Below, piece by piece: positions 6,066 through 55,508 of a stretch of 64,000 nucleotides of DNA. The DNA lies in assembly GCA_963855995.1 (NCBI GenBank), contig OY979717.1, positions 40,240,457 through 40,304,456 of the forward strand, read 5' to 3'. This DNA comes from Muricea muricata. Its lineage: Eukaryota; Cnidaria; Anthozoa; Malacalcyonacea; Plexauridae. A model generated the notes under the pieces. It saw nothing but the letters and a program-made list of their open reading frames with translations, ran no database searches and was not told the origin of the DNA. Numbering within the stretch: the stretch's first letter is position 1; every line of letters starts with the position of its first letter. A program made the translations under genes and the position numbers.

Positions 6066-6451
6066 CTATAGGACAAATAATTTTCCGATGGACATTTAAA
6101 ACTTCATATTATAAATATGAATTAAGACAATTGTTACGTGTATGCGCAGCTAGAAAGTGAACCCGTATCTAAGCATATTTTATACAATTATATGTGCCGA
6201 TAAACCCGTATTCTATATAAGTAACTTAATTGAATGTGTGTTTATTATATCTGTTTGACTCGTTGTTTGACTCCATCAGATCCATCGGACAATCTGAGTT
6301 TAACTGATATCTGCTTCCCATGAGTCATGACGTCACTTATTTTCCATTGGAAAAATGCTTCTCCAACCGAATATACGTTTGTCCGATGAATCCATCTGAA
6401 CCATCGGAAAGTAGATTTGTCCATCGAAGTCAGATTGCCAGTATTGGACAT

Positions 6452-7871
6452 ATATGACATTGCAACTGGTCTGGTGTAAACATGTAAGCTGGCATATGTA
6501 CATCACCAGTGAGCTTAGTTTTCTGTTTTCTGTAACAGGGCAAATGTGGTCTTGTGGTTTACTGTGTACAACAGTGCAGCTATATTAAAGCTAATTTATT
6601 TAGGTATTAAACTGCCACATATAATTTCAAGCTATGAACTGTATTCTCATGTAAAGCTGCATACAATAATTGCCTGAGTATCATGAGCTAACCTTTTCAT
6701 GGATCACCCAAAAAAATACAAAAGAGTACCAGACTCTCTCAAGAGTTGCAGAAAGATAAACAAATGGTAATAAATATGTTATTTAACAATTAGATTACGA
6801 GCTTGAGATTTTTATGAGGTGATAGTTGATGAGGGCAACAACTCTCACATTTTTATGAGGTGATAGTTGAGAGTGAGTAATGTAATTGTTTTTGTAGAAT
6901 CAAAGATTAAACATAAAACATTCAACAAAAAAAAAGATTTTTTAATAATTTTTAAAAAGGAAATCTTTAGAAAGATGATAGTTTTGCTACTTCTATCTAA
7001 TGATGAATAGATAGCGAGTAGAGTAGCCAATCAAATTATAGCATTTGTAATAGTGTGCTAGTATGATTCTACTAATATATATTATATTGTGTGTAGGATC
7101 TAGCCCAAAAGATGTAGGGTGCAATCGCCTGTGTGCGGGCATGAACTAGACGTGAGAAGACATATTTTGTTTGGTATACGAAGGACAAAAGTCAGGTACT
7201 GCATGTTTTTGTCCTATTTTATGTATTTGTAGTGTAATTTAACGTAAAAAAATTGTAGATTATTATCTATTTGTATTGTTTCTGTAGAAACCACCATTAC
7301 ATAGTTAATAAAAAGGCATATACGAGCTGCGTTATTTGGTAAATATTGTGGCGATTGATTCAATATATGGTGCATTTCACTTAGTCCTGTCGAGAATCCT
7401 ACATTGTGTTTTAATCATTTGCAGTGTTCACTGAGAAATTAACAGATGTGTCATAAAACTGTTTTTAGCAAAGTATTCACCCAGTTCAATGGAGCAGATT
7501 AAATACTGTGGCAAGGTATAGTATTATCTGAGTTTTCTCATTCTATCTATTACTAATAGACAACACCAATTATGAAATTTCATACTGTTATTTAACAGCT
7601 AAGACCAGAATGCTTTGCAGAGATTACTGTATATTGCAATTAAGTCTGAATTTTAGCAAAGTACTCTGGACTTAGCAGTGGTTTAATAGTGTTGAATTAT
7701 AATTGAACATCATAATGGGTATGGTCTATTATTGCTTATTGTACTTTGTTAGCTACAGTAGTTGCCAATTCTTTGTAAATTGAAATTTGTGTGTGTTATT
7801 CTTAGGTTTCACTACAGAATTATGATAAGAATCTAAGTGGGTGTTAGCTTGAATGTATTTACGCTAATGAA
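6452..7871. other. non-coding; short duplicated segment
   Basis: No convincing gene. A possible short coding exon (6699-6766, MDHPKKYKRVPDSLKSC then a GT donor) is too short to support. TTTTATGAGGTGATAGTTGA occurs twice, near 6809 and 6850. The rest is AT-rich. Confidence 0.3.
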
Positions 7872-9684
7872 CAGGGCCGTACACAGAGGGGGGGGGCAGC
7901 AGGGGCAGTTGCCCCCCCCAGAGAAAATTAAACTTGCAATTTTTATGTTACTATAAATAATTAAAACTATTCTTGGCTAGTTCAAACATTTGAAATTCAA
8001 TAGCTTATTAGGTATGCGATGTATAATGTGGTGTAAATAATTGAATAAAACATATTATTTTAGAGCCATTTAGATTTTAATTGTACTCTTTCACTATAAA
8101 TTGTTTTTCCATAATACGAGGTAACTGGGTACCAGACTACCAACCGGCATCAAATCATATCGGCCGGCCGCCATATTGGACTGATTCACGCTCGTATGCT
8201 CTTCAATTATTTTAAATGGAGCCAAATGCTAAAAAGCAAAAACTTCGTCAAACAACTCTGTTATTTAAACCAGCCAGTGCTGCCTCAACCAGGTAAGAAT
8301 ATAATTTATATGCTTTAATATTTTTGTTCTATGACTTTGGAAGTTTTATTTGCTAAATAGTAAATATATCATACTGAAGTGAGCCAGTATCATAAATATT
8401 CATGAGACCCTCCGCTGGGCATTAATATAATGGAGTATTTACTTGGTTTCTGAAAATTGTTTACGAATTAACATTTTATGTGTTATATTGTAAATACAGG
8501 TAAATGGTTAGACAGCTAACTAGCTAAGCCTAAAGCCGATGAAGGGGACAGAACGATTTACAAGTGAATTTAAAATTCATGCATGCATATACACTATACT
8601 CATTTAATATATAATGTATGTTCAATATACATATTCATATCTATACTTGTTTGACAGTAATTGACACACTGATTTTAGTCTTTTGTAAACACCACAATCC
8701 CATATCAAAAATTAAAAATACGTTAATATACTAGTCTGTTGGTTCAAGATCTAGACTAGTAGTATAATTTATCAATATAATCATGCTATGTAAATTTTAA
8801 ATTATTTACAAATTCAAACCTTAGAAATGTATTGTCTTAAAAAACTATTTACAGGCCAGCTTAAAATTAGCATAGGATGACCAGTTGGTCCAGTTCCCAT
8901 GGCTAGCTTTGCAACTGCATATTTCTGAAAGACCTTTTGACTGTCAGCCCTGACCTTTAATCATATATGTATACTGTAGTTAAACTTAATAGGTTAACAT
9001 GCCTTCTCTCCTCTCTCGATTCTCTAGCCTCACACTCTGGACTTTGAATATTGGCCATTCCATTTGGATTAATTCCCTGAATATTGACCCAAGCCAATAA
9101 GCCATAGAGTATAAAGAAAGACTATGTTATTAAGCTAACAAGTATCAACTGCTGATGTGAGCAAAGGAAGCAAGCTGTCAGCTGTGTATGTCTTAATAAT
9201 CTGTATCAGCTGACATCACATTAGCATATTATAATAGCACAATTACTATAATAAAATATGGAAAAAAGACATTGATTAGTGTGGCAAAATAGATAATAAA
9301 CAGGTAAGATATCAAGAAGTTTGGAAACAAAATTACAAAATCACATGTGTAGTCGGCCAGCCACGATATCAAAAAGTGCTTCTAAAATAGCTTGATGGCA
9401 ACTTCGTGTTAGAAGCCGGTAACAAGTGGAAAGATATAAGTTATAGTCTATTTAGCAAGGTTTAGGTTGTTACCAAGGCTGATTCGGGATTTTTATGGGG
9501 GAAATCGAGAGATTGTGACTATCTACTATTAAATTGTATTACAGTAAAAAATATGAAATTTCGTGCACAAAAACCTGCATATAAGACTCTTAAACAGTTT
9601 TTTTATCCTTCAAATAGTTTTCGTGTTCTTTGTGTTTTAAAGGGGAAAATTGACCCGAAATCACGCAATAAAAACTGGGAACTA

Positions 9685-9925
9685 CAATCATGGAAATAAT
9701 ATATGTAGACTTTGTATAAAAAGCATGTACTTTTAGCATTCTTGTAGAGCATTTCTTAAATATGTTAGTATTCACTAACAAAATAGTCCCCCCTCCCCCC
9801 AAACACAATGTTGATCATAGCACAAACCTTTGGCAGTGAAACCAAGCACACATCAACATTGTATAGGGAAGAGGGGGGAAATTTGGGAAATTATTGTTTT
9901 GTCTACTAATTAATTTCCATGATTG
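9685..9925 (+). repeat. 241-bp terminal direct repeat, left copy
   Basis: This copy is nearly identical to 14017-14257, differing by a few substitutions and in the C-rich and G-rich runs. It starts CAATCATGGAAAT and ends ATTTCCATGATTG, so it is also a small inverted-repeat (MITE-like) unit. It is flanked by TA outside and TC inside. Internal marks are GTAGACTTTGTATAAAAAGC and CACACATCAACATTGTATAG. Confidence 0.9.
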
Positions 9926-10594
9926 TCCATAAAAAGCATGGACTTGGTGAAATCTTAATACCCAGCAAAGGTTGTCAATTATAATTTCCTGCTTGATTTT
10001 TTACCATAGTTACTCTGTTTGCACCCTCGTATAAGAACACAAGCACATATTCTTTCCGGGGGGGATGGAATTCTCTAAACAGGGGGTGTCTGAAACTAAT
10101 GATTTTGACTGCTTTTCTAAAGTTGTGCCTTATAGTTTGGCCATGGTTTGGTTTTCCAAACAATACATGCACATCTAAGCATTAAAGATATATTTATATG
10201 CAATGACATATCATTGCGACTAATTTCAAGCCAAAATAGCTTTAGATTAAGTTGATTTGAGCTGGTTGTGTAAATAAATATCAGTAAAAAAATTGAACTT
10301 ATAATTGTATTGCCATGATTAACCCGCTAATTGTTGAAGTACAGTAATTAACAAGTTTCACTTTCACGTTGTGTCCGTGGTTCTTGTTGTTATGTCTTTT
10401 ATAAGGATTTCAAAGCTTCCTAGATACCCAGTATGAGAAATGAGACAATAATAAAGCATGTCAGTTTGATTGCTGATGTATGCCTAATTGCCCTTGTTTA
10501 GCTTGAAATTTACTTCTTTTTTCGTTTTTGACAAATCTTTGTTAATGATTGTCACATTGAATTCTTCCAGAATGTTTTTAATCCTTTCTTTAAG

Positions 10595-11680
10595 ATGAGG
10601 AATACAATTTCCCATGAGCATTCTGCACAAATCAGAGCTGCATACCAGCTTTCAAACGTTCGAGGTAAGAAGCTTTTGAAAATGTTTCCACAGTATCCCA
10701 AAGCAGCAATATATAAGCATGCTAAGAAGCCATTGAATGGCAAGCCTGTCTTTGATAAAAGGAAGATGAACAAAGGCAGACCAAACAAACTATCTGTCCA
10801 GGATGAGAGGAGTATACTTCGTACTATTCTAAAACTCCGAGAAGAATTAGGAAATTTTACCTCAAGACGCGTTCAGGTGGAAAGTGGGGTCACACATGTT
10901 AGTAATAGAACTATCAGAAATATGTTAAATAAAGGGGGTTACCATTATTTAAGATCAAGAAAAAAAGGTCTACTGCATGCATCTGACCTCAAAGCTAGAA
11001 AAAAGTTTTGCCAAAAAATCCGACGTAAAAATTTATCTCAAGATTTCTGGAATAAAGGCATCTCGTTGTATTTGGACGGTAAAGGTTTTGAATACAAAAG
11101 TAATCCACATGATCAAGCTCGGGCACCTTGGGCTCGGCAATGGAGAAAACGCGGAGAGGGATTGAAGTCTAGGTGCACGGCAAAGGGCAAAAAAGAAGGC
11201 TCTACTACTGTAAATTTTATGGTAGCAATCGCGTATGGGAAGGGCGTTGTTCTCTGTGAACAGTGGGAGGGGACGATCACGGGTGAGAAATTTGCTTCAA
11301 TTGTGAATCGTTGTTTCAGGAAAGCTTTTCGAAACTCGGCAAATCCAAAGGGCAAAATTTTCTTAATGGACGGATGCCCACGCCAAAATTCAAGAGCAGC
11401 AATGCATGCCATAGATAAAGTGGGTGCAAAGGTTTTCAGAATACCTGCACGAAGTCCAGATCTGAACCCAATAGAAAACTTTTTCCACACTGTCACTATG
11501 AAGTTGAACAGTGATGCCATTGATAAGCAAATAACGAGAGAGAGTATTGACGAGTTTTCCCTGCGAGCTAAGAAAACTATAGAGAGTTTTAATTCCGACG
11601 AGATAGACAAAATAATTGGCAGTATGGATAAACGCATAAGCGCTGTTATTAAAGGACGTGGCCAAAGAACTAAATATTAG
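10595..11680 (+). CDS. Tc1/mariner-superfamily DD34E transposase, intact
   Basis: This is an uninterrupted 361-residue frame, the normal length for a Tc1-type transposase. The N-terminal third is helix-turn-helix DNA binding, with a GRPNKLS linker (residues 61-67) like the GRPR hook of Tc1 proteins and a second helical region (SNRTIRNMLNKGGYHY). The DDE core shows D161 in LYLDGKGF, D259 in IFLMDGCPRQNS and E294 in RSPDLNPIENFF. There are 34 residues between the second Asp and the Glu. The protein would bind the TIRs and integrate at TA. It converges with the Rep gene across a 518-bp gap holding the hairpin. The start ATG is the first in frame; a TTTCTTTAAG acceptor-like string directly precedes it, so an upstream exon cannot be excluded. 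The intact frame among decayed neighbours suggests a young copy. Confidence 0.9.
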   Translation: MRNTISHEHSAQIRAAYQLSNVRGKKLLKMFPQYPKAAIYKHAKKPLNGKPVFDKRKMNKGRPNKLSVQDERSILRTILKLREELGNFTSRRVQVESGVTHVSNRTIRNMLNKGGYHYLRSRKKGLLHASDLKARKKFCQKIRRKNLSQDFWNKGISLYLDGKGFEYKSNPHDQARAPWARQWRKRGEGLKSRCTAKGKKEGSTTVNFMVAIAYGKGVVLCEQWEGTITGEKFASIVNRCFRKAFRNSANPKGKIFLMDGCPRQNSRAAMHAIDKVGAKVFRIPARSPDLNPIENFFHTVTMKLNSDAIDKQITRESIDEFSLRAKKTIESFNSDEIDKIIGSMDKRISAVIKGRGQRTKY

Positions 11681-11836
11681 TTAATAGGAAAACTTCCTTT
11701 CCATCTGTGATTTAAATGTTAATATTCAGTACAGGAATGATGTAACAATCGTTTTAACAGTCAAGGTCGTACTGATTATAGTGTATCCCACGATCTAATA
11801 TCAACTTAGTTTATATTTATATCATAATTAAAAATT

Positions 11837-12078
11837 TTACCACATGTTACCGCATGTTATTGTACATGTTACTGTACATGTTACTATTAATATAGTATAT
11901 TTTTCTATTATATTTCAACATGTTACTACATGTTACTGCTACTTTTATATAGAAGTAATATATATATACTTTTATTAAAAGTAAGCAGTAACATGCAGTA
12001 ACATGTTGAAATATATATAGTAATATATACTATATCTATAGTAACATGTGTGGTAACATGTGCAGTAACATGTGGTAA
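11837..12078. repeat. 242-bp hairpin with iteron-like CATGTTAC octamers between the convergent genes
   Basis: The left arm (11837-11950) and right arm (about 11965-12078) are inverted complements with roughly 85 percent agreement. Both arms share TTACCACATGTTAC at the base, ATATAGTATAT in the middle and TTTCAACATGTTACT near the loop. The octamer CATGTTAC or its complement occurs about eleven times, in clusters with regular short spacing. The position between the 3' ends of the transposase and the Rep gene, together with the repeated short motif, resembles a rolling-circle origin with Rep-binding iterons, but could also be a terminator or a foldback. I did not find a strict NANTATTAC nick motif. 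Confidence 0.7.
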
Positions 12079-12198
12079 CTTGTTCTCTGGTAGTAAATGA
12101 TTAATGAAATACCATATAGTAAAGTTTTACACCAACAATAAGGTCTTGTGATGAGGATTTTGTTCCTTTTTTGCCTTTCATCAAGTTATAGTATGAGT

Positions 12199-13576
12199 TC
12201 AACTTATTTCTCCCATCAGTACAAGCTTAGCAAAGCAGTGTGGACACGGCATCATTTTTTTTTGTTCTCTCTCTGGGATACTGTGTGTGAAGCGGAAGAC
12301 TTTCCATCGTGACGCCATCATATCATCTTCACGTTGGTCTTCAGCGTTGTACGAGCCACGGTATTTGATGACGTCCTTAGACGTTGCAAATATCGGAATG
12401 TCGGTATCGATACAGACATCCATGGCAAAATTCTTTCTGGCTGGCAGGTTCACATGATCCCCTTCCAGCAAGAGAAGCAAGCTCTTCCACTCGATCAACT
12501 CTCTTGTCCAGCGAAAATCGTTAAGCCAAATGATTTCTTTCTTGTCTGCACCTACCCAAGCATACTTGTCTGCGGCAGGGTTAGAAAAGGTGTTGAATAG
12601 TAGCTCGAGAGGTCTAAACAAAAATGTTTTTCCACAGTCTGTCGGGCCGACTATCATGACATTCCTGTATTTTCCTCTTCCAAGAATTAGTATATCTCGT
12701 ACGGCAGCAGCGAACAAGATTGGATGCAATTTGTTATTGACTAAGACTTCTTCAGCGCACCTCAGCCATAGTCCCTCACAGTTCTCAACGCAAGTACCAG
12801 CAGCCGCTTCGCGTATTATATCTATACGAGATGCTTTTTGACATTTCAAAACAGCAGCTGCTTCCTTCATTCTCCAGGTTGGTTGAATAAGCTCATCAAG
12901 GCTTTTCTTTGACCGGGAAAGAGCATAGTTTGCCAGGTCTTTTTTACCCTCTTCTTGCTGAGCATTGGCAACTGCGAGGCAGGTCGTTTGATTCCTTATA
13001 TTGTGCTTGTGAATAAACTCAGACACATCCACACTTGACAGCTTTTTCATCTTTTTCGCAGGAGGGTTGCTGTTAGGTTCTTCATCATTCTGAGGTGCAG
13101 TTGCCAGCGTGGCTGCTTGTCTATTTCTGCATCTCTGATGATAAGTACGCTGCAGACAGTTCTTCGTTTTTGGGGATCCAATTTCTTCCAGGTTTGGATG
13201 ATTTGGGCTGTGGTAAACATTCTCGTCAGACTTGGAAATATACCTGTACGCGGTATAATATCCATCGTGATCCGAGAAGTTCACCACAACTCCATGCTTT
13301 CTTTGAAGGGCTCGCTTACACTCAAGCCATTTTTTTTGGGCCGGTGAGCTTCAAGGCCATATGGTAGTGGAATCCCTGATCTGCATGATTCTCGAGGCAA
13401 CATGCCCAGTGCTGTGGCCTAAATTTACTTCGTTCTGAAGTGAAGACCTCACATATGGCTGCAGCGAATGATTCTCTGGTTGGGAACTTATTCAAATCAG
13501 CTTGGCTGTAAGTTATCAGATAGCTTGTCCGTGGTTTACCACAATTTATTTCATCTCGAAATTCAGCCATCATCAA
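12199..13576 (-). CDS. Rep-like rolling-circle replication initiator: HUH endonuclease plus SF3 helicase, with one frame break
   Basis: The minus-strand protein starts at 13576. The first segment (84 codons) holds motif I (YLITYSQADL) and motif II with the metal-binding pair H70-Y-H72 (FHYHMALKL). The second segment, in another frame, carries motif III (YYTAYRYISK, with Tyr and Lys in YxxK spacing). It then carries a long SF3 helicase: Walker A GPTDCGKT (residues 214-221 of that segment), Walker B EIIWLNDF (251-258), sensor-like IPIFATSKD (297-305), and a terminal CPHC. The break lies in a run of eight A on the coding strand (13330-13337), one base different from an open frame. Known relatives are Rep proteins of CRESS-DNA and parvo-like viruses and their endogenous copies. 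The expected role is nicking and unwinding a circular or hairpin origin. No capsid gene is nearby. The break may be real decay, sequencing error or slippage. Confidence 0.85.
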
Positions 13577-14016
13577 AAATAAGGTCGTTTAGAGAAAAAA
13601 ATTTGAATTTCCCTCCGCCAATCAATGTTTTGCATGTTCAAATTGCCCGTATGCACATGGCATGTAAATACGATTTTAATATTTGTAAACATCAGAAGTC
13701 AAACGCTTAGGAAACTGTAACAAAGCTTATATAATTATAAAGTTTATTTGAACTCAATTGTAACTACGTAAGCGTTTTTATTCGTCTGGAAAGATTGTCA
13801 TTGAAGAAAGCAGCGCCCAAATATAAGATGTAAGTTTTTAAAAGTATTAGGTTGCCATGATTATTTCTTTAATAATATAATACTTTGAATATGTTATGAA
13901 AGCCCCATCGGCTTCATGCATATTCATATCATATAAAATAGCCCTTGACTAAAAGTTTGTGCTGATTTACATTTTAAATATGGAAAGAACTGCGCTCAAT
14001 TTTTTTGAAATTTAGA

Positions 14017-14257
14017 CAATCATGGAAATAATATATGTAGACTTTGTATAAAAAGCATGTACTTTTAGCATTGTTGTAGAGCATTTCTTAAATATGTTAG
14101 TATTCACTAACAAAATAGTCCCCCCTCTCCCCAAACACAATGTTGATCATAGCACAAACCTTTGGCAGTGAAACCAAGCACACATCAACATTGTATAGGG
14201 GGGAGGGGGGAAATTTGGGAAATTATTGTTTTGTCTACTAATTAATTTCCATGATTG
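14017..14257 (+). repeat. 241-bp terminal direct repeat, right copy
   Basis: Same unit and same orientation as 9685-9925. It is flanked by GA on the inner side and TA on the outer side, so only the outer flanks of the two copies together give a TA duplication. Confidence 0.9.
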
Positions 14258-14502
14258 TAGCTTAAAAATGGGGGTTTGAGAACAAATAACTTGAGAACTA
14301 TTTGGAGAACAAAAAAACGGTTTAAGAGTCTTATATGCAGTTTTTTCTGATCTTTCTGATGCTAGCAGTCGTTTTTACTATTGTTAAATATAAGATTTTA
14401 CCTTTTTTGCTGTAATACAATTTAATAGTAGATAACCACAGTCTCTCGATTTTTCTCATAAAAATCCCGAATTAGACTTGGTAACACCCCAAACCTAAAT
14501 CA

Positions 14503-14726: not shown

Positions 14727-17700
14727 TCATTTGATTTCTCCAATTCCCATCATACTTCTGAACTTTTCGAACTTGACTTTTGATACTGGTTTCGTCATGA
14801 TGTCTGCCATCATATTTTCCGTTTGACAATAGTCAACATTAATAACTTGATCGTTTACTTTTTCTCGAACAAAATGAACTGATATGTCAATATGCTTTGT
14901 TCGATTATGGAACTTTGCATTCTTCGATTGTCCTCGTAAATAAGAGATGGTGTTTCTTGTGTCAATCCGATGTCATTCAACAATCTCCTTAGCCAGACTG
15001 CTTCTTGTGCTGCAGAACTGAGTGCCATATATTCTGCTTCAGTTGTTGATCGGGATACACATACTTGTCTCTTGCTTTGCCAACTAACCGTGCTGCCATC
15101 AATCTGGAATACATATCCAGATGTTGAACGTCTAGTGTCCAGGTCCCCAGCCCAATCAGCGTCTGAATACCCAGTAAGAGAACAAGTTTTGCCTTTCGCT
15201 TTATAGATAAGACCAAAATCAATTGTTCCTTGTATGTATCGTAGAATCCTCTTCACACCTTGCCAGTGCTCCTTTCCCGGTCTTGACATGTATTTTGAGA
15301 GAATTCCAACAGCAGATGCCAGGTCAGGACGTGTTGCAGTTGTTGCATATGTCAAACATCCTATTATCTTTTGATACTCTTGTACGTTCACAGGATCCTC
15401 ATCATCTGACAACTCATAGAACTTCTTACCTGGTTCCATTGGTGTAGAAACAGGTTTGCAGTGTTCCATATTGAATCTTTTCAGGACTCCTTCAAGATAC
15501 TTTGGTTGGCTAATGGTCAGAATTCTCGACTTTCGATCACGTTTCACCAACATGCCAAGAACATGATTAACTTCCCCAAAATCTTCAATCTTGAATCTCC
15601 TTCCAAGTGACTTCTTCTCTTTGTTAAGCATAACAATATCATTTGAGAACAACAGGATATCATCCACATGAAGAGATAAGATGACAAAGTTAATCTTGCC
15701 ATTCTGCTGCTTCACAGATTTGATATACAGACATGGATCAGCTTCGACTTGCTTGTAACCATCTGATTTAAGATAACCATCAATTGCCGAGTTCCAACAA
15801 CGAGCTGCTTGCTTCAAGCCATAGAGACTTTTCTTTAGTTTGCAAACATGATTTGGATTTTCTTCGTCTGTGTAACCATCAGGTTGTTTCATGTAGATCT
15901 CCTCGTCCAGATCACCTTGCAGGAAAGCAGTGTGGACATCCATCTGATGTACTTCCCAGTCGCAAGTGTTTGCTAGTGCTAGTAAAGTTCTAATGGACGT
16001 GTTTCGTACAACAAGAGAAAATACTTCATGGTAATCAATACCCTCAGCTTGAGAGTACCCTTGGGCTACAAGTCGTGCCTTGAATCTCTCGACCGACCCA
16101 TTTTCATCTCGCTTTACCTTAAAAACCCAACGGCTGCCTACGACATTCTTTCCTTCTGGTAACGGAACAAGTTCCCAGGTATCGTTACTGATCAATGAAT
16201 CATATTCAGAGTCTGTTGCCTCTTTCCATTGAATACAATGATCTCCACTCCAGGCTTGCTTGATGTTCCTTGGCTCACTGATATCTGCGGTAAGATCCTC
16301 AACATTATACAGTTCTTCATCATATCGAGCAGGAGGTCGTCGCCGTCTTTGGGGATTCAAATTCTCAACATTTCGCATAAATGTTTCTTCATAGGTTTCT
16401 CCCACTGGTTGGTGGTGGTGTGCAGGTTCAGGAACGTTATCTTCTGCATGGTCTTGTTGATCATTCGCATTATAAGGGTTATCACTATCAGCTACACCTG
16501 GAACGGGGAATGGGTCAAATGGCAACTGTTCAGAATTTGGTTTTGATGAAAGTTCACTGTTATTAAACTCATGGAACCTTTCTTCGTCGAACACGACATC
16601 TCTACTTCGAATGAACTCTTTGGTAGACATGTCATAGAGCTTGAAACCTTTTGTCCCTTCGGGGTATCCCAATAAATATACACATACGAGATTTCCTTTG
16701 CAATTTCGTACGCTGATGATCAGGAATGTGCATGAATGATTTGCATCCAAATACTCTCAGATTTGACACATCTGGCTTTCGATTGAACAGTTTTTCAAAA
16801 GGTGCTTCACCTTTCAATGCAGTAGTTGGACTACGATTTCGAAGATACACTGCGGTATTCATAGCTTCAGCCCAGAACTCGAATGGTACTTTGGAGTGTG
16901 CCATCATCGAACGACTAGTTTCCAAAAGTGTCCGATTCATCCGTTCTGCTACCCCATTTTGTGCCGGGTTGTACGGAACTGTGGTTTGGTGTACAATTCC
17001 ACTTTCTTTCAGGTACGCTTTGAAGGCTTTCGAGCAGTATTCACCACCATTATCTGAGCGTAGAACTTTGACTTTCTTTCCAGTAGTGTTTGCTGCGTAG
17101 TTGGCAAACTCTTTAAACTTCTCCAACACTTCGTCCTTGCCTTTGATGAAATAAACGTGTACATACCTCGAATAGTCATCAACAAATGTAACAAAGTACT
17201 TTGAATTTCCATGGGAATTGACATGCATTGGACCACACACGTCGCTGTGCACAATTTCAAATGGTTGGGTTGCTCGGTAAGGTATTTCTTTCGGATAGGC
17301 AGTCCGATGTTGCTTCCCCATCATACAGGATTCACAAGTAGAGTTGTCTCCACTCTGTCCCGTAGTGTTCATTCCATCAACCATGTTTTCATTGATCAAC
17401 TTTGTAAGATTGTCCACTCCTAAGTGACCAAAACGACAGTGCCAAAGGTGTAGATTCGGATCTTCTTTTGCAACATTACTTCTTTTCCAACTTCTTCATT
17501 ACTTGGGATAACTTTCAACATGTAGAGTTTTCCACTCATTTCCCCAATAGCTAACAACTTCGAATTTCTTGTAACTTTACAGATATCTCCTTCAAACGTA
17601 ACAAGTGCACCTAATTTCACCATTGCTCGGACGGATAGTAAGTTCTTTCCAAGGTCAGGAAGATACAGAACTTCTTTCAATGAAATATTTTGAATACAAC

Positions 17701-17884
17701 CATCCAGATCAGCAATTAAATCATAATTTCCTTTTCCATAGGCCAAAATGGTACGATTGTCCTCGAATTTCTTGCAAGTTTCGCAAGGTTTCTTGAATTT
17801 TACAAAGTCAGTCAGATGATCTCTCTCAAAGGTCATATGCTGTGTTGCCCCCGAGTCAACTATCCAGCCAGACTTGTTTTCCAC
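14727..17884 (-). pseudogene. copia pol: protease, integrase, reverse transcriptase, RNase H, frameshifted
   Basis: Starting at 17884, the protease active site appears as WIVDSGATQHM. It is followed by the pre-integrase zinc region (LWHCRFGHLG, CESCMMGKQHR) and the integrase core (HSDVCGPM, VLRSDNGGEY, NGVAERMNRTLLE). The next frame holds the C-terminal integrase piece and the reverse transcriptase (WVFKVKRDENG, MDVHTAFLQGDL, SLHVDDILLF). RNase H follows (GYSDADWAGD, STTEAEYMALSS). Frame changes occur near 17470 (an AAAA run), near 16700, and near 14937, where roughly 16 bases of RNase H appear lost. Reading past this, the natural end would be a TGA at 14727-14729. The element normally copies its RNA in virus-like particles and integrates the cDNA. 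This copy is young but disabled. Confidence 0.92.
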
Positions 17885-17910
17885 ATCAGATGTGTGTAGT
17901 GCTTCATTAT

Positions 17911-18825
17911 CTACAACATTGTCATGTCATGCTTCTCTTTCTTGGCACAATGAGCAGATCCTTTCCCTTTCTTTTGAGTGCTACTTTGCTCAGCATTCAA
18001 CTTCGCTTTACGCTTTGGACAGTCTCTAGCAAAATGTCCACGTTCTTGACAGAAATGACATGTTCCACGGAATGGTTTCCCAGTATATTTTCCTTCAGTG
18101 TTTCCACTAGTTTCCTTTTTTCCTTGTGGTGACGTATAAAATCTTCTACCACCTCGTTGGACTGAAAAAGCATCCTCACATTTCTTTGACTTTGTGTCAT
18201 TCGCCCTATCGGCATCATTTAAAAGCATTGCTTTGACTTTTTCATACGAGAGATTGTCCTCACCAACAGCATCCAAGGCCGTGATTAAAGGTTTAAATTC
18301 TTCAGGAAGACTTGCAAGAACAGTCATAGCTAACTCTTTATCATCAATCGTCTGTCCCATTTCTTTTAATTGGTCGTGCAGGGAACGTAAATGATTAATA
18401 TGTGCCAACATATCTCCCCCACTTTGAAATCTACACGAATAGTATTGCTGTCTCAATCTCACCTTCTGCAAAATAGACTCGCGTGCGAATTGGCTTTTCA
18501 GGGCATCCCAGGCTTGTTTTGCATTTTGCGTATCTCTGACATGTATTTGCTGTTCCGGATCCATGCCCAAACAAATGTACGTCCACGCCTTTTTTGCCGC
18601 TGTTTCAAAAGCTTTCTTTACTTGCGCCGAAGCAGTTTCTTCAGGAGGTTCAGCCGATCCATCCACGTGGGCAAATAAATCGAAACTCTCCAAGTAAAGT
18701 CGCATGTTGAACGCCCAGGATCTGTAGTTAGATCCGTTCAATTTTGCCATCCTCAGCACATTTTCGACTGCAGACGCCATCGTAATTTTTTTGAAATTTG
18801 ATACCGATTTTTGCTTATTTAACAA
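17911..18825 (-). CDS. copia gag (UBN2-type) with zinc knuckle
   Basis: A 304-codon frame; the more natural start is the internal Met at about 18780 (MASAVENVLRMAKLNGSNY). It carries a UBN2/gag-like domain typical of copia (WAFNMRLYLESFD, AKQAWDALKSQFA, LRQQYYSCRFQ). The CCHC zinc knuckle is CHFCQERGHFARDC, followed by a basic, Ser-rich tail. It forms the particle and packages RNA. In intact copia elements gag and pol are usually one frame. Here the frame changes just after a duplicated ATGAC in the tail, and the stop at 17911 separates gag from protease. Confidence 0.9.
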   Translation of the reverse strand: MLNKQKSVSNFKKITMASAVENVLRMAKLNGSNYRSWAFNMRLYLESFDLFAHVDGSAEPPEETASAQVKKAFETAAKKAWTYICLGMDPEQQIHVRDTQNAKQAWDALKSQFARESILQKVRLRQQYYSCRFQSGGDMLAHINHLRSLHDQLKEMGQTIDDKELAMTVLASLPEEFKPLITALDAVGEDNLSYEKVKAMLLNDADRANDTKSKKCEDAFSVQRGGRRFYTSPQGKKETSGNTEGKYTGKPFRGTCHFCQERGHFARDCPKRKAKLNAEQSSTQKKGKGSAHCAKKEKHDMTML

Positions 18826-18848
18826 ACATTTCTTAACTTAGAGCCTTC

Positions 18849-19050: not shown

Positions 19051-22044
19051 AATCACACAAGCAATACAACAAATATCGCGAATGTACTTTTCTAACACAA
19101 ACTTGCGATCAAACGATGTATTTCAAAACTTGGCTGGCCGACTAGTGTATATTTGCTGTACTGTAAACTACCTTGAGCAGAGTTTAGATTTTTGACTAGT
19201 AGATTTTCCAGTGTTTATTTGACAATGTCTACATTAATTTCAAGAAGTATATAAGTATATTCCCATCAGTTAATAGCCATTTGTGAATTGTGATAATGGG
19301 ACTACTCAGTTCCTGTTGACCATACCTTCAACCACCATTAGTTGTTAATACTATAGTGCTATAATGCTAATACAATAGTATTAACTCTTTCACATTTATG
19401 ACTTATGTATGGTCGTAAAGTTAATAAATAAATAATATATTTCGGTTTTCCCTTTAAAAAATTTATACATGGTAAAAATAGCCATTGCAAATTTGTGCTG
19501 ATGCAAGCATGAAATGTTCTTTTACCTTATTGGTGTAGTGTTGAAGCTGAAAGCTCTATTCCTCCTGAACCTTTACCACCTGATAATAAAAGCAGTCTGA
19601 CTTTTGATTCCCCACACAAGGAACAACATACCTCACCTGTTCATGATATCAATGACCCTGCCATTTACATTTCCAAAAAGCTTTCTGATGGTGACAAGTT
19701 ATCTTTGCTGAAATCAAAGTCTGTCTTGCTCCATAACTTTGAGTGTCCTGTTACAGCCGGTAGGAAATTCAAATCATCTTGGATGCAACACAGGCCATGG
19801 TTGAGGTATAGTATTACAAAGGACAAAGCTTTTTGTGCATACTGTATATGCTTTGGAAGAAAGAAGAACATTCCAGGAGCTTCCTCATGTTCTTCAAATT
19901 TGTCCCCATTCGTGTCATGTGGATTTAGCAACTGGAAAAAAGCAACTGGAAAAAACAACTACATTGATCAACACATGTTAAGTGAAGCCCATCAGACTCC
20001 AGAAGAAATGGTCCATTGTTTTCTTAGCACGTGTCAGCCAGGTAAAGATATTGTAGCGAGACTATCTAAGCAAAAGTCAGAGCAGCAAATCCGTACAAAA
20101 AAAGGATTATTATCTATCATCGATGTCATCATCAAATTGGCAATGCGAGGAGCACTCTTAAGAGGTAACTGGGTTAAGAAAACTGGCAAAGAAAATGGAA
20201 ACTTCATCTTCTTTTTGAACTGGAAATCAGAATTTGACAAGGATCTCAAAGACCATTTGGAACATGCTCCACAAAATGCAAAGTTCACTTTGCCCTGCAT
20301 CCAAAATGAAATTATTTCAATGTGCGAGTCCATAATACGAGAGAAAGTAATTGCCACGGTTCAAACATATTGGAGTGTAATGGCTGATGAAACAACGGAT
20401 GTTTCTGCAACGGAACAAATGAGTATATGCATACGGTTTGTGAATAACAATATGGAAGTATGTGAAGAGTTCTTGGGCTTTGTAAAATTGACAAAGATGG
20501 ATGCTCAGTCTGTTTTTGATGTTTTGATTCCAACGTTAGAAGGATGGGGAGTAGATTTGACAGCACTTGTTGGACAAGGATATGATGGAGCGGCCGTGAT
20601 GAGTGGAAGCAATAATGGTTTGCAGAAAAGTGTCTGATGCTTACCCAAATGCTATTTATGTACATTGCCGTTCTCATGTTCTCAATCTAGCACTTGCAGG
20701 CACTTGCACAGGCATTGATGGTGTTTGGGATTTGTTTGACAATGTAGCCAAGATCACAAGTTTTTTGGGAGATGGTGCTAAAAGAAAAGAAATGTTTAAA
20801 GAGATTGCAGCGACTGAGGCCAATGACGAATTAACAGCCTCATTAACAGAGGGTGATGATGGTGATGATGGTGATGGTGATGATGATGATGACGACGATG
20901 ACGAGGAGGATGAAGATGAAGACGACAACGATGAAGGAAACGTGGAAGTCGATCATGGCCTTCGTAAGTCAAATAAGGCAATCTTAGGAGGAGCAAAAAA
21001 GAAAACCGTTCCAAAGCTTTGTCCCACCAGATGGAGTTCAAAGGTGGAAACCCTATCTGCCCTGATGGCTAAGTATTCGTCGGTCATGGAAACACTTGGA
21101 CAAATCGCAGACCAAAGCAAAGGGGAGCCGAGGAGCAATGCCCAATCATACATTCGCCTAATGGAATCTCCACAGTTCATCGTAGCACTTGTTGTGGTTC
21201 AGTTCATTCTGAGTTTTACAGCAGCAGTCACCAAAATACTGCAGGCAAAAGAATGCAATCTTGGTGATGCATATGAAGAAGTAAACGGAGCAAAAGAATG
21301 CATAAGAGCTTCGCACGCAGGTGATTCCTGGATTAAAGTGTGGAAAAAAATTCAGTCGATAGGAACAGCACTTGGAATTGAAATAACTAAGCCACGAACT
21401 GCGGTAAATCAACGCCACTGTGCATATGCTGGTAACGCCAACCAAACAAGTGAAGATTATTACAGAATCAACATCTGCTATCCTTTTATTGATCGTGTTG
21501 TTGAAGAGATTGAGACAAGATTTACAGTCAAGCACAAAGGATTAATTGCTGCTCAATCTCTTGTGCCAGTATATTTTGATAGACTAACTGATTCAAATAA
21601 GAAAGATTTGAAAAAGTTCTTTGGAAAGTACCTTACTTTCTGCGAAGAGAACAGCCTTGATTCAGAAATTGTCAGGTGGAAACGAAAATTCGCTGAAGTT
21701 CCTCTCAAGCAGAAGCCTAAAACTGCATGCGACGCAGCAGCGAAATGTGATGCTACATTTTATCCAGCGATCAATAAAATCTTGACAATTTTTTTGACAA
21801 TTCCGGTTGGAAGTGTGTGTTGTGAAAGGTCGTTTTCAGCACTCAGACGCCTCAAACTGTGGACGCGAGCCAGTCTGTGTATCCCAACGCCAGAAGATGT
21901 GTATGCGCGAAAAGCCAAATGGCGCTTATGACCATACGTATACCCTCTAGTTACTGTAGTTAGGCGATCACAAACCTAAATATAGTTATTAGTGCCCCAC
22001 TGCCTGTGTGCCCCCCTGGCAAGAAAATCCTGCGTACGGCCCTG

Positions 22045-52944: not shown

Positions 52945-55508
52945 CTATTTATTGTTATTATTATGACTATTATTACAAACAATGCGTGCAGGAACGGTCT
53001 CGATAATGTGGTGAGGTGTTTGTATGTACAATTGATAGGCATTGCTGAACCATCTCCCTAAGGTCTTGATTAAGTGATCTGGAATACCTGTGGCAGCGGC
53101 AGATGTTGCTGCGCCAATGCGAAAACTATGACCTGAAAAGTTTCCTGATAAACCAGCGCGAGCTACAGCATTTTTGAGCCAAGTGGTTAGTGTTGCTTTA
53201 GTCAGTGGAGATCCAGTTGAATGACGAAAGAGGGGTCCTGCATCAACCCCACGAAGATGAAGGTAGTCCAGCAGCACCCTAACTGTGCAGATGTCTTTGC
53301 CTGTGATCCCGCGGCGTATAGTGGACCCTTGCCGAAAGGGGTCGGTTTTCGAGCATTTGATATGGAGAAAGATTACCTTTGGGTTGATATGCTTGTCGAT
53401 TTTCACATCGGAGAGAGCTAAATAGATTCGCGAGTCAAACTTGTTGCTTGGCGTTGTAAACTCGCCAGATCGAAGGAAGCCAAAAAATCCCATGCAGCAT
53501 GCAGCCCAAAACAAAATATCGTCATGGCAGTCGAAATTTAACACTGCCCGTATACTTGACAGTACTGCCAACGTCACTGGAAGCTGTTGTCAAGTCGAGA
53601 TACCCTGCGAGCGTTTAACACCGCGCAAGACTCGCTTGAGCCATAAACAATTAGACAGCGGATTCGCGAAGCCGTTTTCTATATGGAGCAATCGCACTGC
53701 AGCCAAATAAACCTTGATAGACGACGCTTTAACTGTATGCGACAGGTGAGTGGCTAATAACATCAAAGTCCATTCAGACGCTGGCAAAGGGGAACCATTG
53801 ACATTGAAACACTTGCTCCAGTGACAAAACTCAAGAAATTTGCGCTGCGTCGTAGGTTCGTCGAGTTGAATTAGCAATGCCCTAAACATTAGTGTTTGCG
53901 TCTGCTGTTCTAATTTAAATAATTCAAATGGGCTAGCACTGCTGGAGGGACCATAACCGGGGTTAGGTGAGCATGAGGAGCCAGTTGACAAAAGACCTGC
54001 ATGTTAAAACGAGACAGCGGATCAGCTATGTTATTATCCTTTCCAGGGACATGTTTTGCGATGATAGAAAAGTTCATGCGAGCAGCGCACAAAAATAACT
54101 CTCTGACAAGCTTCATAATGTACTGTCTTTAGATGTCCCAGAATTAATTATTGCAACAACACTTTGGTTATCACGCAAGGTATTTATCAATGATAGCCAG
54201 GTGCTCAGCAGACGAAGGGCAGTTCTTTTTAGCTGACTTAAGAGTGATGGTATTGGAGTGAAATCCCAGCCGAAACCCATAACGAAAACCATTTAAAATG
54301 TACTCAACTTTGCTTCTGTCCAAATGATTGCATAATTGTAAGCCAGCTTGGCTACATTAATTGGAGAAACTACAGATACATCCGGCAGGTTAAAAGCATT
54401 TATACAGGAAAAAACATGCTTATTACCAACACCGTCTCTCTTAAGCTCGTTTTGGCTGTCGCCAGCGGGTTGGGTCATCGCCAGGGCTTTGCCCTCGCTT
54501 TCATCCAAACTCTGCAGTGGATTCTGCAGTGCGCTCCGCCACACCCGTTTTGATCGCAATTGTGGCGAAATCTACAGGATTCGCATGGACTGATACATGC
54601 CCCTGTATTACATGATTTGCAAAAAATCATCAAATGAAGGTCACCGCGGGGCTCGCTAGGTCTTGCCGCTTGGGGTTGATGCTTGACTGCTACAGATGTA
54701 TGATAGTGATACAGATCTGACTTAATTTGACTCCAATTCTTTGAATTGGACGCAGCGGCTTTGAGACGAAAGGTGCGATCATAGCTATACCAACACCGTC
54801 CAGGAAATTGCTTAGCCATGCGCATTATTAAGGCCATATAGGCAAGTCACGAATTTTTCTGGTTGACATGCAGTGATCACAGAAATGTAACTATTAAAAC
54901 ACTCTATCCAAGTCACAATATCAGTGATTTCAGTTTTCTTTTGCGACAATGTAGTCGTCGTGGGCACAAATGAGCGACCTTCAATTGTAAAGGAGGTGGA
55001 TTCGGTCATTGGGGCATCTAAGTTTTCTGGCATGAGCTCGGACAATTCAATAAACTTGCCAGATAAAATGTGCAAGACAAGTTTAGCAGAGACAGGTGGG
55101 CGACCCGGGCCCAAGATAAACGCTTGGTTAAAATTCCTGTAATAACTATAGGAGCAGGAACTGCCTCACGGACAAAAGTAGGGCAAAAATTAACTGTCCG
55201 ATCGACGACGCTTGATTGTGTCAATGCGTCCGACAAGCCAACAAAAACAGGAGCAGTCAACATACCTTGAGATGGCGCATGCGATGTGGTTGTGCTTGGC
55301 ATCGACGGACTAACCTCACCCATTTGCTCCAATGTAGTAACATTGCTTGCCACTGAACGTGATCCTGATTAATTTGCGATGGCTTCTGCTACTGCGGTCT
55401 GTAAGCCAGCACAGAACTCTGGTGATTTGAATGCAGCGGCCCAATCAATAGAAGAGTGGGATGAACCCGGCGCTGTATCGTTAATGATCTCTCTTACAGG
55501 CTCTGACA
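52945..55508 (-). pseudogene. tyrosine-recombinase (DIRS-like) retrotransposon, internally deleted
   Basis: The minus strand starts at about 55508 (MSEPVREIINDTAPG). ORF1 continues with frame breaks through FPGRCWYSYDRTFRLKAAAS and a Cys-rich knuckle (CNTGACISPCESCRFRHNC). The N-terminal edge of the reverse transcriptase follows (LNGFRYGFRLGFHSN). At about 54177 this jumps directly to the RNase H part (RDNQSVVAIINSGTSKDST, HVPGKDNNIADPLSRF), so the reverse-transcriptase core is missing. The recombinase follows: a SAM-like core-binding domain (53590-53991) and the catalytic domain (52945-53577) with GHSFRIGAATS and the R..H..R region (SGEFTTPSNKF, FSGHSFRIG) and a C-terminal YIQTP Tyr. A stop near 55370 and a frame break near 53585 add to the decay. 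Intact relatives integrate by recombinase without target duplication. Confidence 0.85.

What the first reader, a model, noticed from the sequence alone, without database searches (positions are those of the whole stretch)
9685..14257. Transposon pairing a DD34E Tc1-type transposase with a rolling-circle Rep (HUH plus SF3 helicase)
Seen: an intact 361-residue DD34E transposase and a Rep-like gene with HUH, YxxK, Walker A/B and SF3 sensor motifs lie convergently between short TIRs (CAATCATGGAAAT) flanked by TA. Known: Tc1/mariner elements carry one transposase gene and move as double-stranded DNA; Rep proteins nick and unwind origins of circular ssDNA replicons, and parvovirus-like and CRESS-like transposons have been reported from lower animals and fungi. 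Inference: one mobile unit may combine cut-and-paste integration with an extrachromosomal ssDNA or circular replication stage. I do not know this gene pair as a described element type.
Basis: partly seen in the sequence, partly recalled or inferred. Interest (0 to 1): 0.93.

Follow-up and report, generated by a model that had tools for sequence, protein, structure and literature searches.

The report
Transposon carrying its own rolling-circle replicase
This is a real family of jumping DNA that carries two machines at once, one that pastes it into chromosomes and one of the kind that small circular viruses use to copy themselves, and some of its copies sit in the genome as identical head-to-tail arrays, as circular copying would leave them.

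Summary
The window's unit (9685-14257) is one member of a divergent two-gene transposon family in a 453-Mb eukaryotic genome. Of 40 sampled transposase loci, 35 have the HUH/SF3 Rep, or a remnant of it, beside the transposase, convergent in all 35. Divergence of the two proteins correlates over 20 pairs (r = 0.88, 0 of 2000 permutations). The "TIRs" are tips of two long terminal direct repeats (DRs; 241 bp here, 184-275 bp in nine families) with a shared inner palindrome. TA flanks the outer tips in 6 of 7 insertions with both ends read, including a 5-unit array (DR-core)5-DR. Neighbouring units are identical in four arrays; three arrays of one family differ by 8 substitutions. DRs can leave alone: two sites carry CAG, the Sleeping Beauty footprint. 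The window's Rep frame is broken; 6 of 20 other loci keep both frames open. I infer insertion by the Tc1-type transposase and amplification through a one-DR circle copied by Rep. No circle was seen. KolobokP shares the architecture but not the enzymes; a degenerate truffle element pairs a Rep with transposases.

The parts
9685..9925 (+). left terminal direct repeat (241 bp) with inverted tips CAATCATGGAAAT and an inner C-rich/CAATGTTG...CAACATTG/G-rich palindrome; TA outside, TC inside
   Evidence: single-strand DNA fold z = -6.6
9926..14016 (.). core (4091 bp) between the two repeats
10595..11680 (+). DD34E Tc1-type transposase, 361 aa, open frame
11842..12083 (.). large intergenic palindrome with GTTAC/GTAAC repeats between the 3' ends of the two genes; a candidate Rep site in some lineages only
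   Evidence: fold of 11800-12110 z = -14.8
12199..13350 (-). Rep, C-terminal part: YxxK and SF3 helicase motifs (stop-to-stop open frame 12199-13350)
13322..13576 (-). Rep, N-terminal part: HUH (HYH) motif; in another frame, so this copy's Rep is broken
14017..14257 (+). right terminal direct repeat (241 bp), 97% identical to the left; GA inside, TA outside
9683..9684 (.). TA target duplication, left
14258..14259 (.). TA target duplication, right

Best explanation
A two-gene transposon of about 4 kb without a capsid gene. SHOWN BY SEQUENCE: layout TA-[DR]-core-[DR]-TA, a convergent DD34E transposase and HUH/SF3 Rep that co-diverge, an array (DR-core)5-DR with TA at the extreme ends, identical neighbouring units within arrays, DR copies with TA on both sides and no core beside them, and DR loss with CAG footprints. 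INFERRED: the transposase cuts at DR tips and joins the element to TA. An integrated copy carries the DR palindrome twice in direct orientation, so if Rep's origin lies there, replication from one DR to the other would release a circle of one DR plus the core. Rep then copies this by rolling circle, giving concatemers. The transposase returns either concatemers, cut DR to DR, or single circles, in which two nicks on opposite strands at the two tips of the one DR leave 3' tails that are filled in after joining; that regenerates two identical DRs, as LTRs are regenerated. LEAST CERTAIN: the origin's place and the route of re-entry.
For: Co-occurrence in 35 of 40 sampled loci, all convergent. Co-divergence r = 0.88 over 20 pairs, 0 of 2000 permutations. 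TA on both sides in 6 of 7 insertions whose two ends were read (window, L014, L018, L021, the L013 two-unit array, the C9 array). The seventh (L023) has CT on both sides and sits in a satellite, where 14 of the 18 monomers spanning the site have one CT there. The C9 array is five 4028-bp units plus one DR. Neighbouring units are identical in each of four arrays (0 differences over 4023, 4028, 4023 and 4049 bp), while three arrays of one family differ from each other by 8 substitutions. DR pairs are 97-100% identical in the five copies compared. CAACATTG is present in 9 of 9 DR families, CAATGTTG in 8 of 9 (CAGTGTTG in L021), against 14-38 of 2000 simulations for CAACATTG alone. DR loss with CAG in L016 and L051, and an imperfect one in L030; CAG is the Sleeping Beauty footprint (PMC8151067, passages). 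In the protein database 8 contig lengths are shared exactly between the listed Rep and transposase hits against 1.9 expected (one, 2329 bp, is too short for both genes and must be chance), and 34 of 119 listed Rep contigs are 3.8-5.2 kb. No third gene: ORFs outside the two genes are at most 129 aa in five loci with both frames open.
Against: No circle junction, single-stranded form or transcript was seen. Identical units could also come from unequal crossover or gene conversion after insertion; pieces further along the C3 and C9 arrays differ from the reference unit at 1-2 sites each. Array copy numbers may be assembly estimates, and C34 may be an allelic copy of C3. L024 has CG, not TA, at its right end and has lost its left end. 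Inner flanks are TA in L021 and on one side in L013 and L009, so TA alone does not mark the outer ends. The nick site and Rep binding site are unknown: the intergenic repeats are enriched in only 10 of 14 copies. Five sampled loci lack Rep. The L023 empty site is not clean: one base is missing on the left and one is extra on the right. In the circle the DR tips are flanked by GA/TC in most families, so opening it needs cutting at non-TA tips; L051 and L030 show that such tips have been cut.
Confidence: 0.68

Rival explanations
1. Pure cut-and-paste Tc1-type transposon with KolobokP-like composite ends. Arrays arise after insertion by unequal crossover between DRs, and Rep acts in another way (for example nicking the DR to provoke recombination, or as a host-interference protein).
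For: KolobokP has the same layout, multimers, solo repeats and repeat excision with a His-Me nuclease in place of a Rep, and its authors discuss induced unequal crossover or a circle joining a solo repeat (PMC9587614, abstract and Discussion part 1). Target duplications stay at the extreme ends in either model.
Against: Neighbouring units are identical over about 4 kb in four arrays while sister arrays carry their own differences, so each array was copied recently from one template. Rep is kept over divergence down to about 40% identity with its catalytic motifs, which argues for a replication or nicking role.
Confidence: 0.25
2. A capsid-less ssDNA replicon (virus or plasmid lineage) that captured a Tc1-type transposase as its integrase; the chromosomal copies are its integrated form and the episome is the main life stage.
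For: Rep resembles the HUH and SF3 modules of small ssDNA viruses (REP_ORF2-G2P in 29 of 33 members, Parvo_NS1 and PPV_E1_C in 13 of 33 each, Gemini_AL1 in 9 of 33, E up to 0.1). Excess of contigs of about 4 kb.
Against: Pattern-based scans found no relative of the Rep in IMG/VR or GTDB contigs, and tblastn found none in plasmids. No capsid-sized third ORF. Copies are abundant in the chromosomes: 115 transposase matches, fragments included.
Confidence: 0.2
3. Chance nesting of a Rep remnant in, or next to, an unrelated Tc1 element.
For: The window's Rep frame is broken, and this copy is itself nested in a larger inverted repeat.
Against: 35 of 40 loci, one fixed orientation, common DR ends, co-divergence.
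Confidence: 0.01

Closest known systems
KolobokP DNA transposons (Kojima and Bao 2022, PMC9587614; abstract and Discussion part 1 read)
   Same: Internal region between two long terminal direct repeats, each with its own short inverted tips; multimers (repeat-INT)n-repeat with target duplications at the extreme ends; solo repeats; excision of the repeat alone; two genes, one a DDD/E transposase.
   Different: The transposase is of the Kolobok superfamily and the second gene is a His-Me homing nuclease. Here the transposase is DD34E Tc1-type with TA targets and the second gene is an HUH/SF3 Rep.
Geminivirus-like transposon of Tuber melanosporum (Liu et al. 2011, PMC3198968, section 8 read)
   Same: A Rep-like gene and transposase ORFs inside one element with inverted repeats.
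   Different: Known from one reconstructed, degenerate copy (interrupted Rep, two damaged transposase ORFs), 37-bp TIRs, no obvious target duplication, no direct repeats or arrays described in that section. Its transposase family and any relation to this Rep were not tested here.
Tc1/mariner transposons such as Sleeping Beauty (PMC8151067, passages)
   Same: DDE_3 transposase with a Tc3-type HTH, TA targets, CAG footprint.
   Different: Those carry one gene between inverted repeats (recalled); no long direct repeats, Rep or arrays.
Helitrons and other eukaryotic rolling-circle transposons (recalled; search listings and two passages of PMC12730594 only)
   Same: HUH nuclease plus helicase in a eukaryotic mobile element.
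   Different: Helitrons insert through the HUH protein itself and have no DDE transposase; here the helicase motifs are SF3-like.
Parvovirus-like repeats of acorn worm, PIVE/PEVE of planarians, DENSOV_HM of Hydra (PMC3198968, section 8)
   Same: NS1- or E1-like Rep genes amplified in genomes of lower animals; PEVE was known only outside the host genome.
   Different: The acorn worm element carries a coat-protein ORF; no transposase is described for any of them in that section.
Coral CMITEs (Wang et al. 2010, PMC2872659; abstract and passages)
   Same: Short inverted-repeat elements with an internal region conserved across families, some in tandem arrays.
   Different: TTAA targets and piggyBac-like tips, about 100 bp, no Rep and no Tc1-type transposase.

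Membership tests
Tc1/mariner superfamily | DDE_3 transposase with DD34E triad | tested here: met
Tc1/mariner superfamily | TA target duplication | tested here: met
   TA/TA in 6 of 7 insertions with both ends read; CT/CT in L023; L024 has CG at its one surviving end
Tc1/mariner superfamily | short excision footprint (CAG type) | tested here: met
   CAG in L016 and L051; imperfect in L030; seen for loss of the DR, not of a whole element
Tc1/mariner superfamily | one transposase gene between simple inverted repeats | tested here: not met
   two genes, long direct repeats
KolobokP-type composite transposon | long terminal direct repeats with own inverted tips, multimers, solo repeats | tested here: met
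KolobokP | Kolobok-type transposase and His-Me nuclease | tested here: not met
   DDE_3 transposase and Rep-like second gene
CRESS/parvovirus-like Rep | HUH nuclease motifs joined to SF3 helicase motifs | tested here: met
   conserved motifs in 33 sequences, read by eye
CRESS/parvovirus-like Rep | significant match to a curated viral Rep family | tested here: inconclusive
   29 of 33 match REP_ORF2-G2P at E up to 0.1 (best 2.1e-6); below the cut-off in all 7 whole Reps whose scores are shown
CRESS-DNA virus | capsid gene | tested here: not met
   no ORF over 129 aa outside the two genes in five loci with both frames open
Helitron | HUH Rep with PIF1-type helicase and no target duplication (recalled) | tested here: not met
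   SF3-like motifs, 2-bp target duplication
Rolling-circle replicon | covalently closed circle or ssDNA intermediate | not testable with these tools
   no reads available; arrays and contig lengths are indirect

The most novel reading that the evidence does not exclude
A eukaryotic copy-out/paste-in DNA transposon that has split its life between two unrelated enzymes. A viral-type HUH/SF3 Rep copies a one-DR circle out of the two-origin chromosomal copy by rolling circle, and a Tc1-type transposase pastes it back by nicking the two tips of the single DR on opposite strands, so that gap filling regenerates both terminal repeats. It would behave as an integrating eukaryotic plasmid.
Probability: 0.4. 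Interest if true: 0.95.

Novelty: new variant of a known kind. Interest (0 to 1): 0.86.

Why it matters
Tc1-type transposons are thought of as pure cut-and-paste DNA elements, and rolling-circle Reps as tools of plasmids, small viruses and Helitrons. A family that keeps both, with co-diverging genes and array structures fitting circular copying, would join these worlds. It offers a testable answer to how a cut-and-paste element gains copies, and to the question raised for KolobokP of how a composite layout with excisable repeats is kept intact: the second repeat could be rebuilt at every cycle. It may also help explain where virus-like Rep genes and MITE-like solo repeats in animal genomes come from.

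Tried and rejected
Chance nesting was rejected. A plain-TIR reading was rejected because the tips belong to direct repeats. A parvovirus-type ITR reading was considered because each repeat is a long imperfect palindrome, and set aside because the two repeats are in direct orientation and the outer boundary is a TA duplication. The idea that GA/TC inner flanks protect the DR from excision was dropped after L051 and L030 showed loss of DRs from such flanks. Intergenic repeats as the universal origin were dropped because they are enriched in only 10 of 14 copies. Searches for relatives in IMG/VR: the Rep piece and Rep alignment gave none, the transposase gave none, and the transposase alignment gave three distant matches of 25-31% identity, not followed up. 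GTDB contigs and plasmids gave no relative of the Rep. In one search the transposase list as typed is missing one entry (118 lengths used), which shifts one printed hit number by one (P0237 appears as 236). One search used the window, 12 of the 20 first loci and 7 of the 8 contig pairs; left out were loci with little or no Rep (L012, L013, L020, L022, L026, L028), two repeats of the L010 family (L011, L027) and the 2329-bp pair. The window, L016 and L024 are one close family, so the 20 pairs are not independent.

Literature: ten searches were run. Nine of them looked for such an element or its kin and showed no description of a Tc1-type transposase paired with an HUH/SF3 Rep in the rows listed; one looked for footprints. 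Most listings were capped at 12-25 rows. The library is open-access PubMed Central only; Repbase was not available. PMC12730594 was opened for passages and holds nothing on this pairing in them.
Full report
WHAT IS THERE. The window lies at G000:C2:40240457-40304456 in an unnamed 453-Mb assembly of 74 contigs; that it is eukaryotic is my inference from size and content. The unit 9685-14257 is 4573 bp: a 241-bp direct repeat, a 4091-bp core and a second 241-bp direct repeat. The core holds an open DD34E transposase gene on the + strand (10595-11680) and a Rep-like gene on the - strand (12199-13576) whose frame is broken at about 13320-13350. The transposase matches DDE_3 (1.3e-13) and, just under its cut-off, HTH_Tnp_Tc3_2. 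The Rep carries an HYH motif, a YxxK motif and SF3-type helicase motifs, conserved across 33 relatives (32 of them 46-86% identical to the first). Pfam matches of the Rep are weak: REP_ORF2-G2P in 29 of 33, Parvo_NS1 and PPV_E1_C in 13 of 33 each, Gemini_AL1 in 9 of 33, at E up to 0.1.

THE ENDS. CAATCATGGAAAT occurs four times exactly, against 0.01 expected, at both ends of both direct repeats. Outside stands TA (acTA|CAATC and GATTG|TAgc); inside stand TC and GA. The same plan holds in other families: L014 (repeats 99.5% identical), L018 (100%), L021 (100%), L023 (99.3%) and the two-unit Rep-less array L013. Nine repeats of 184-275 bp, one per family, begin with CAATC or CAACC and end with its inverse or one change from it. 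Inside, CAACATTG is present in 9 of 9 and CAATGTTG in 8 of 9 (CAGTGTTG in L021), with C-rich sequence before the one and G-rich sequence after the other; simulated sequences of the same dinucleotide make-up hold CAACATTG in 14-38 of 2000. The proteins of these families share as little as about 40%. GA/TC is the inner flank pair in 5 of 9 families; one or both sides differ in L018, L013, L009 and L021, and L021 has TA on both inner sides.

BOTH GENES TRAVEL TOGETHER. The transposase has 115 matches in this genome, fragments included. Of 20 loci fetched first (top hits, arrays and intact frames, so not a random sample), 18 carry Rep or a Rep remnant. Of 20 further transposase matches, chosen by hand among the longer non-array ones, 17 carry Rep or a remnant in the next 1.6 kb. 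All 35 are convergent. Among the top 120 hits of each protein search (of 420 and 826), 8 contig lengths are shared exactly against 1.9 expected when lengths are jittered, reached in 0.08% of trials; one of the 8 (2329 bp) is too short for both genes. Of 119 listed Rep contigs, 34 lie between 3.8 and 5.2 kb, against 7 between 2.5 and 3.8 kb and 7 between 5.2 and 10 kb. I could not read those contigs.

ARRAYS. The transposase matches show head-to-tail arrays: 7 units of 4049 bp (C1), 13 listed units of mostly 4023 bp (C3), 7 on C34, 5 of 4028 bp (C9), 12 of mostly 2832 bp (C1) and 2 of 2499 bp (C8). The C9 array runs from a DR left end to a DR right end, a length of exactly five units plus one DR, with TA on both outer sides; within the family the inner flanks are GA/TC. 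The C3 and C1 arrays have TA at the left end; their right ends were not found. Two neighbouring units compared in each of four arrays are identical (0 of 4023, 4028, 4023 and 4049 bp), while arrays of one family on C3, C9 and C34 differ from one another by 8 substitutions, plus a gap against C9. C34 is a small contig and may be allelic to C3. Pieces further along the C3 and C9 arrays differ from the reference unit at 1-2 sites each. Both genes are open in L009, L010, L011, L014, L021 and L023, 6 of the 20 first loci.

LOSS OF SINGLE REPEATS, AND LONE REPEATS. In L016 the left DR is gone, leaving TA-CAG-TC; in the C3 array one junction reads GA-CAG-TC (L051) and another keeps GA-CA with nine flank bases lost (L030). 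CAG is the published Sleeping Beauty footprint (PMC8151067, passages). The window's DR has 31 matches in the genome. Of 14 that I fetched with 150-bp flanks, 5 have TA on both sides and no core sequence next to them: L035, L036, L037, L039 and L041; L041 shares its left flank with three other copies, so it may belong to a longer element. The other nine are single ends of longer copies, mutated, partial or lack TA. L023 sits in satellite DNA: the joined flanks match 18 monomers across the junction; 14 have one CT there, 3 have AT and 1 has TT, while the insertion has CT on both sides, with one base fewer on the left and one more on the right than a clean duplication. Against the rule, L024 has CG at its right end and has lost its left end.

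HOW IT MOST LIKELY WORKS. Shown: insertion at a duplicated dinucleotide, usually TA; a DR that can be lost with a transposase-type footprint; arrays copied recently from single templates; two linked, co-diverging genes. Inferred: the integrated copy holds the DR palindrome twice in direct orientation. If Rep's origin lies in the DR, replication from one DR to the next releases a circle with one DR, the known principle by which tandem origins release circular replicons (recalled, not tested). In that circle the two genes point away from the DR, so the DR could also hold their promoters. Rolling-circle copying gives concatemers, matching the arrays. The transposase then reinserts a DR-to-DR piece. 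For a one-DR circle, nicks at the two tips on opposite strands leave the DR as a 3' tail at both ends; joining both tails to TA and filling the gaps yields TA-DR-core-DR-TA with two identical DRs, as observed in L018 and L021. The intergenic palindrome 11842-12083 (fold of 11800-12110 z = -14.8) with GTTAC repeats is a second candidate for Rep action, but only 10 of 14 copies are enriched for them (first-order simulations).

RIVALS. Unequal crossover after insertion can also make arrays, as discussed for KolobokP (PMC9587614); it does not by itself explain why Rep is kept. A replicon that captured a transposase is a matter of emphasis and of ancestry, which I did not resolve. Chance nesting is excluded.

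COMPARISON. KolobokP shares the architecture and behaviour of the repeats but not either enzyme. The truffle element of Liu et al. 2011 is the nearest published pairing of a Rep with transposases that I found, known from one reconstructed, degenerate copy (PMC3198968, section 8). Nine searches of open-access papers showed no description of the present pairing in the rows listed; subscription papers and Repbase were not searched. I therefore call it a new variant of a known kind, composite-like DNA transposons. If the circular stage is shown, a new category would be justified.

LIMITS. The whole-genome Rep search and the flank search did not complete. No reads were available, so the circle remains inference, and array lengths depend on the assembly.

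Noticed in passing
window 9458-9633 and 14282-14496: The flanks of the unit are about 85% inverted repeats of each other, so the transposon probably landed near the centre of an older palindromic element; the search for empty copies did not complete.
   Followed up: partly
window 14855-18837 (-): Long ORFs that by eye look like a Copia-type retrotransposon (integrase, reverse transcriptase, gag-like zinc knuckle); not scanned.
   Followed up: no
window 19513-21931 (+): Two overlapping long ORFs that by eye look like a hAT-type transposase; not scanned.
   Followed up: no
window 52945-53589 (-): ORF that by eye resembles a tyrosine recombinase of DIRS or Crypton type; not scanned.
   Followed up: no
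L023:1-2381 and 6259-9001: A two-gene copy inserted inside a satellite array of about 264-bp monomers, giving many paralogous empty sites.
   Followed up: yes
L012 and L013: Shortened units of about 2.83 kb (12 listed copies, Rep reduced to a 38-aa match) and 2.5 kb (2 copies, no Rep found) also sit in head-to-tail arrays, as non-autonomous derivatives.
   Followed up: partly
L040, L041, L042, L043: Four diverged copies of the repeat share nearly the same sequence left of the tip (ttaatttgagcgc...acagacTA), suggesting they belong to a longer, different element family that uses the same kind of end.
   Followed up: no
L015:4537-4768: The intergenic palindrome of this copy is about 95% perfect over 232 bp, while L018, L019, L021, L022, L023 and L009 show only weak stems there.
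   Followed up: partly
L024:1990-2060: This copy of the window's family ends in CG instead of TA and its left end has run into repeated sequence, so it was truncated or rearranged after insertion.
   Followed up: no
C1:58261929-58293825: The first spacing in the 2.83-kb array is 2695 instead of 2832 bp, so the first junction differs from the others.
   Followed up: no
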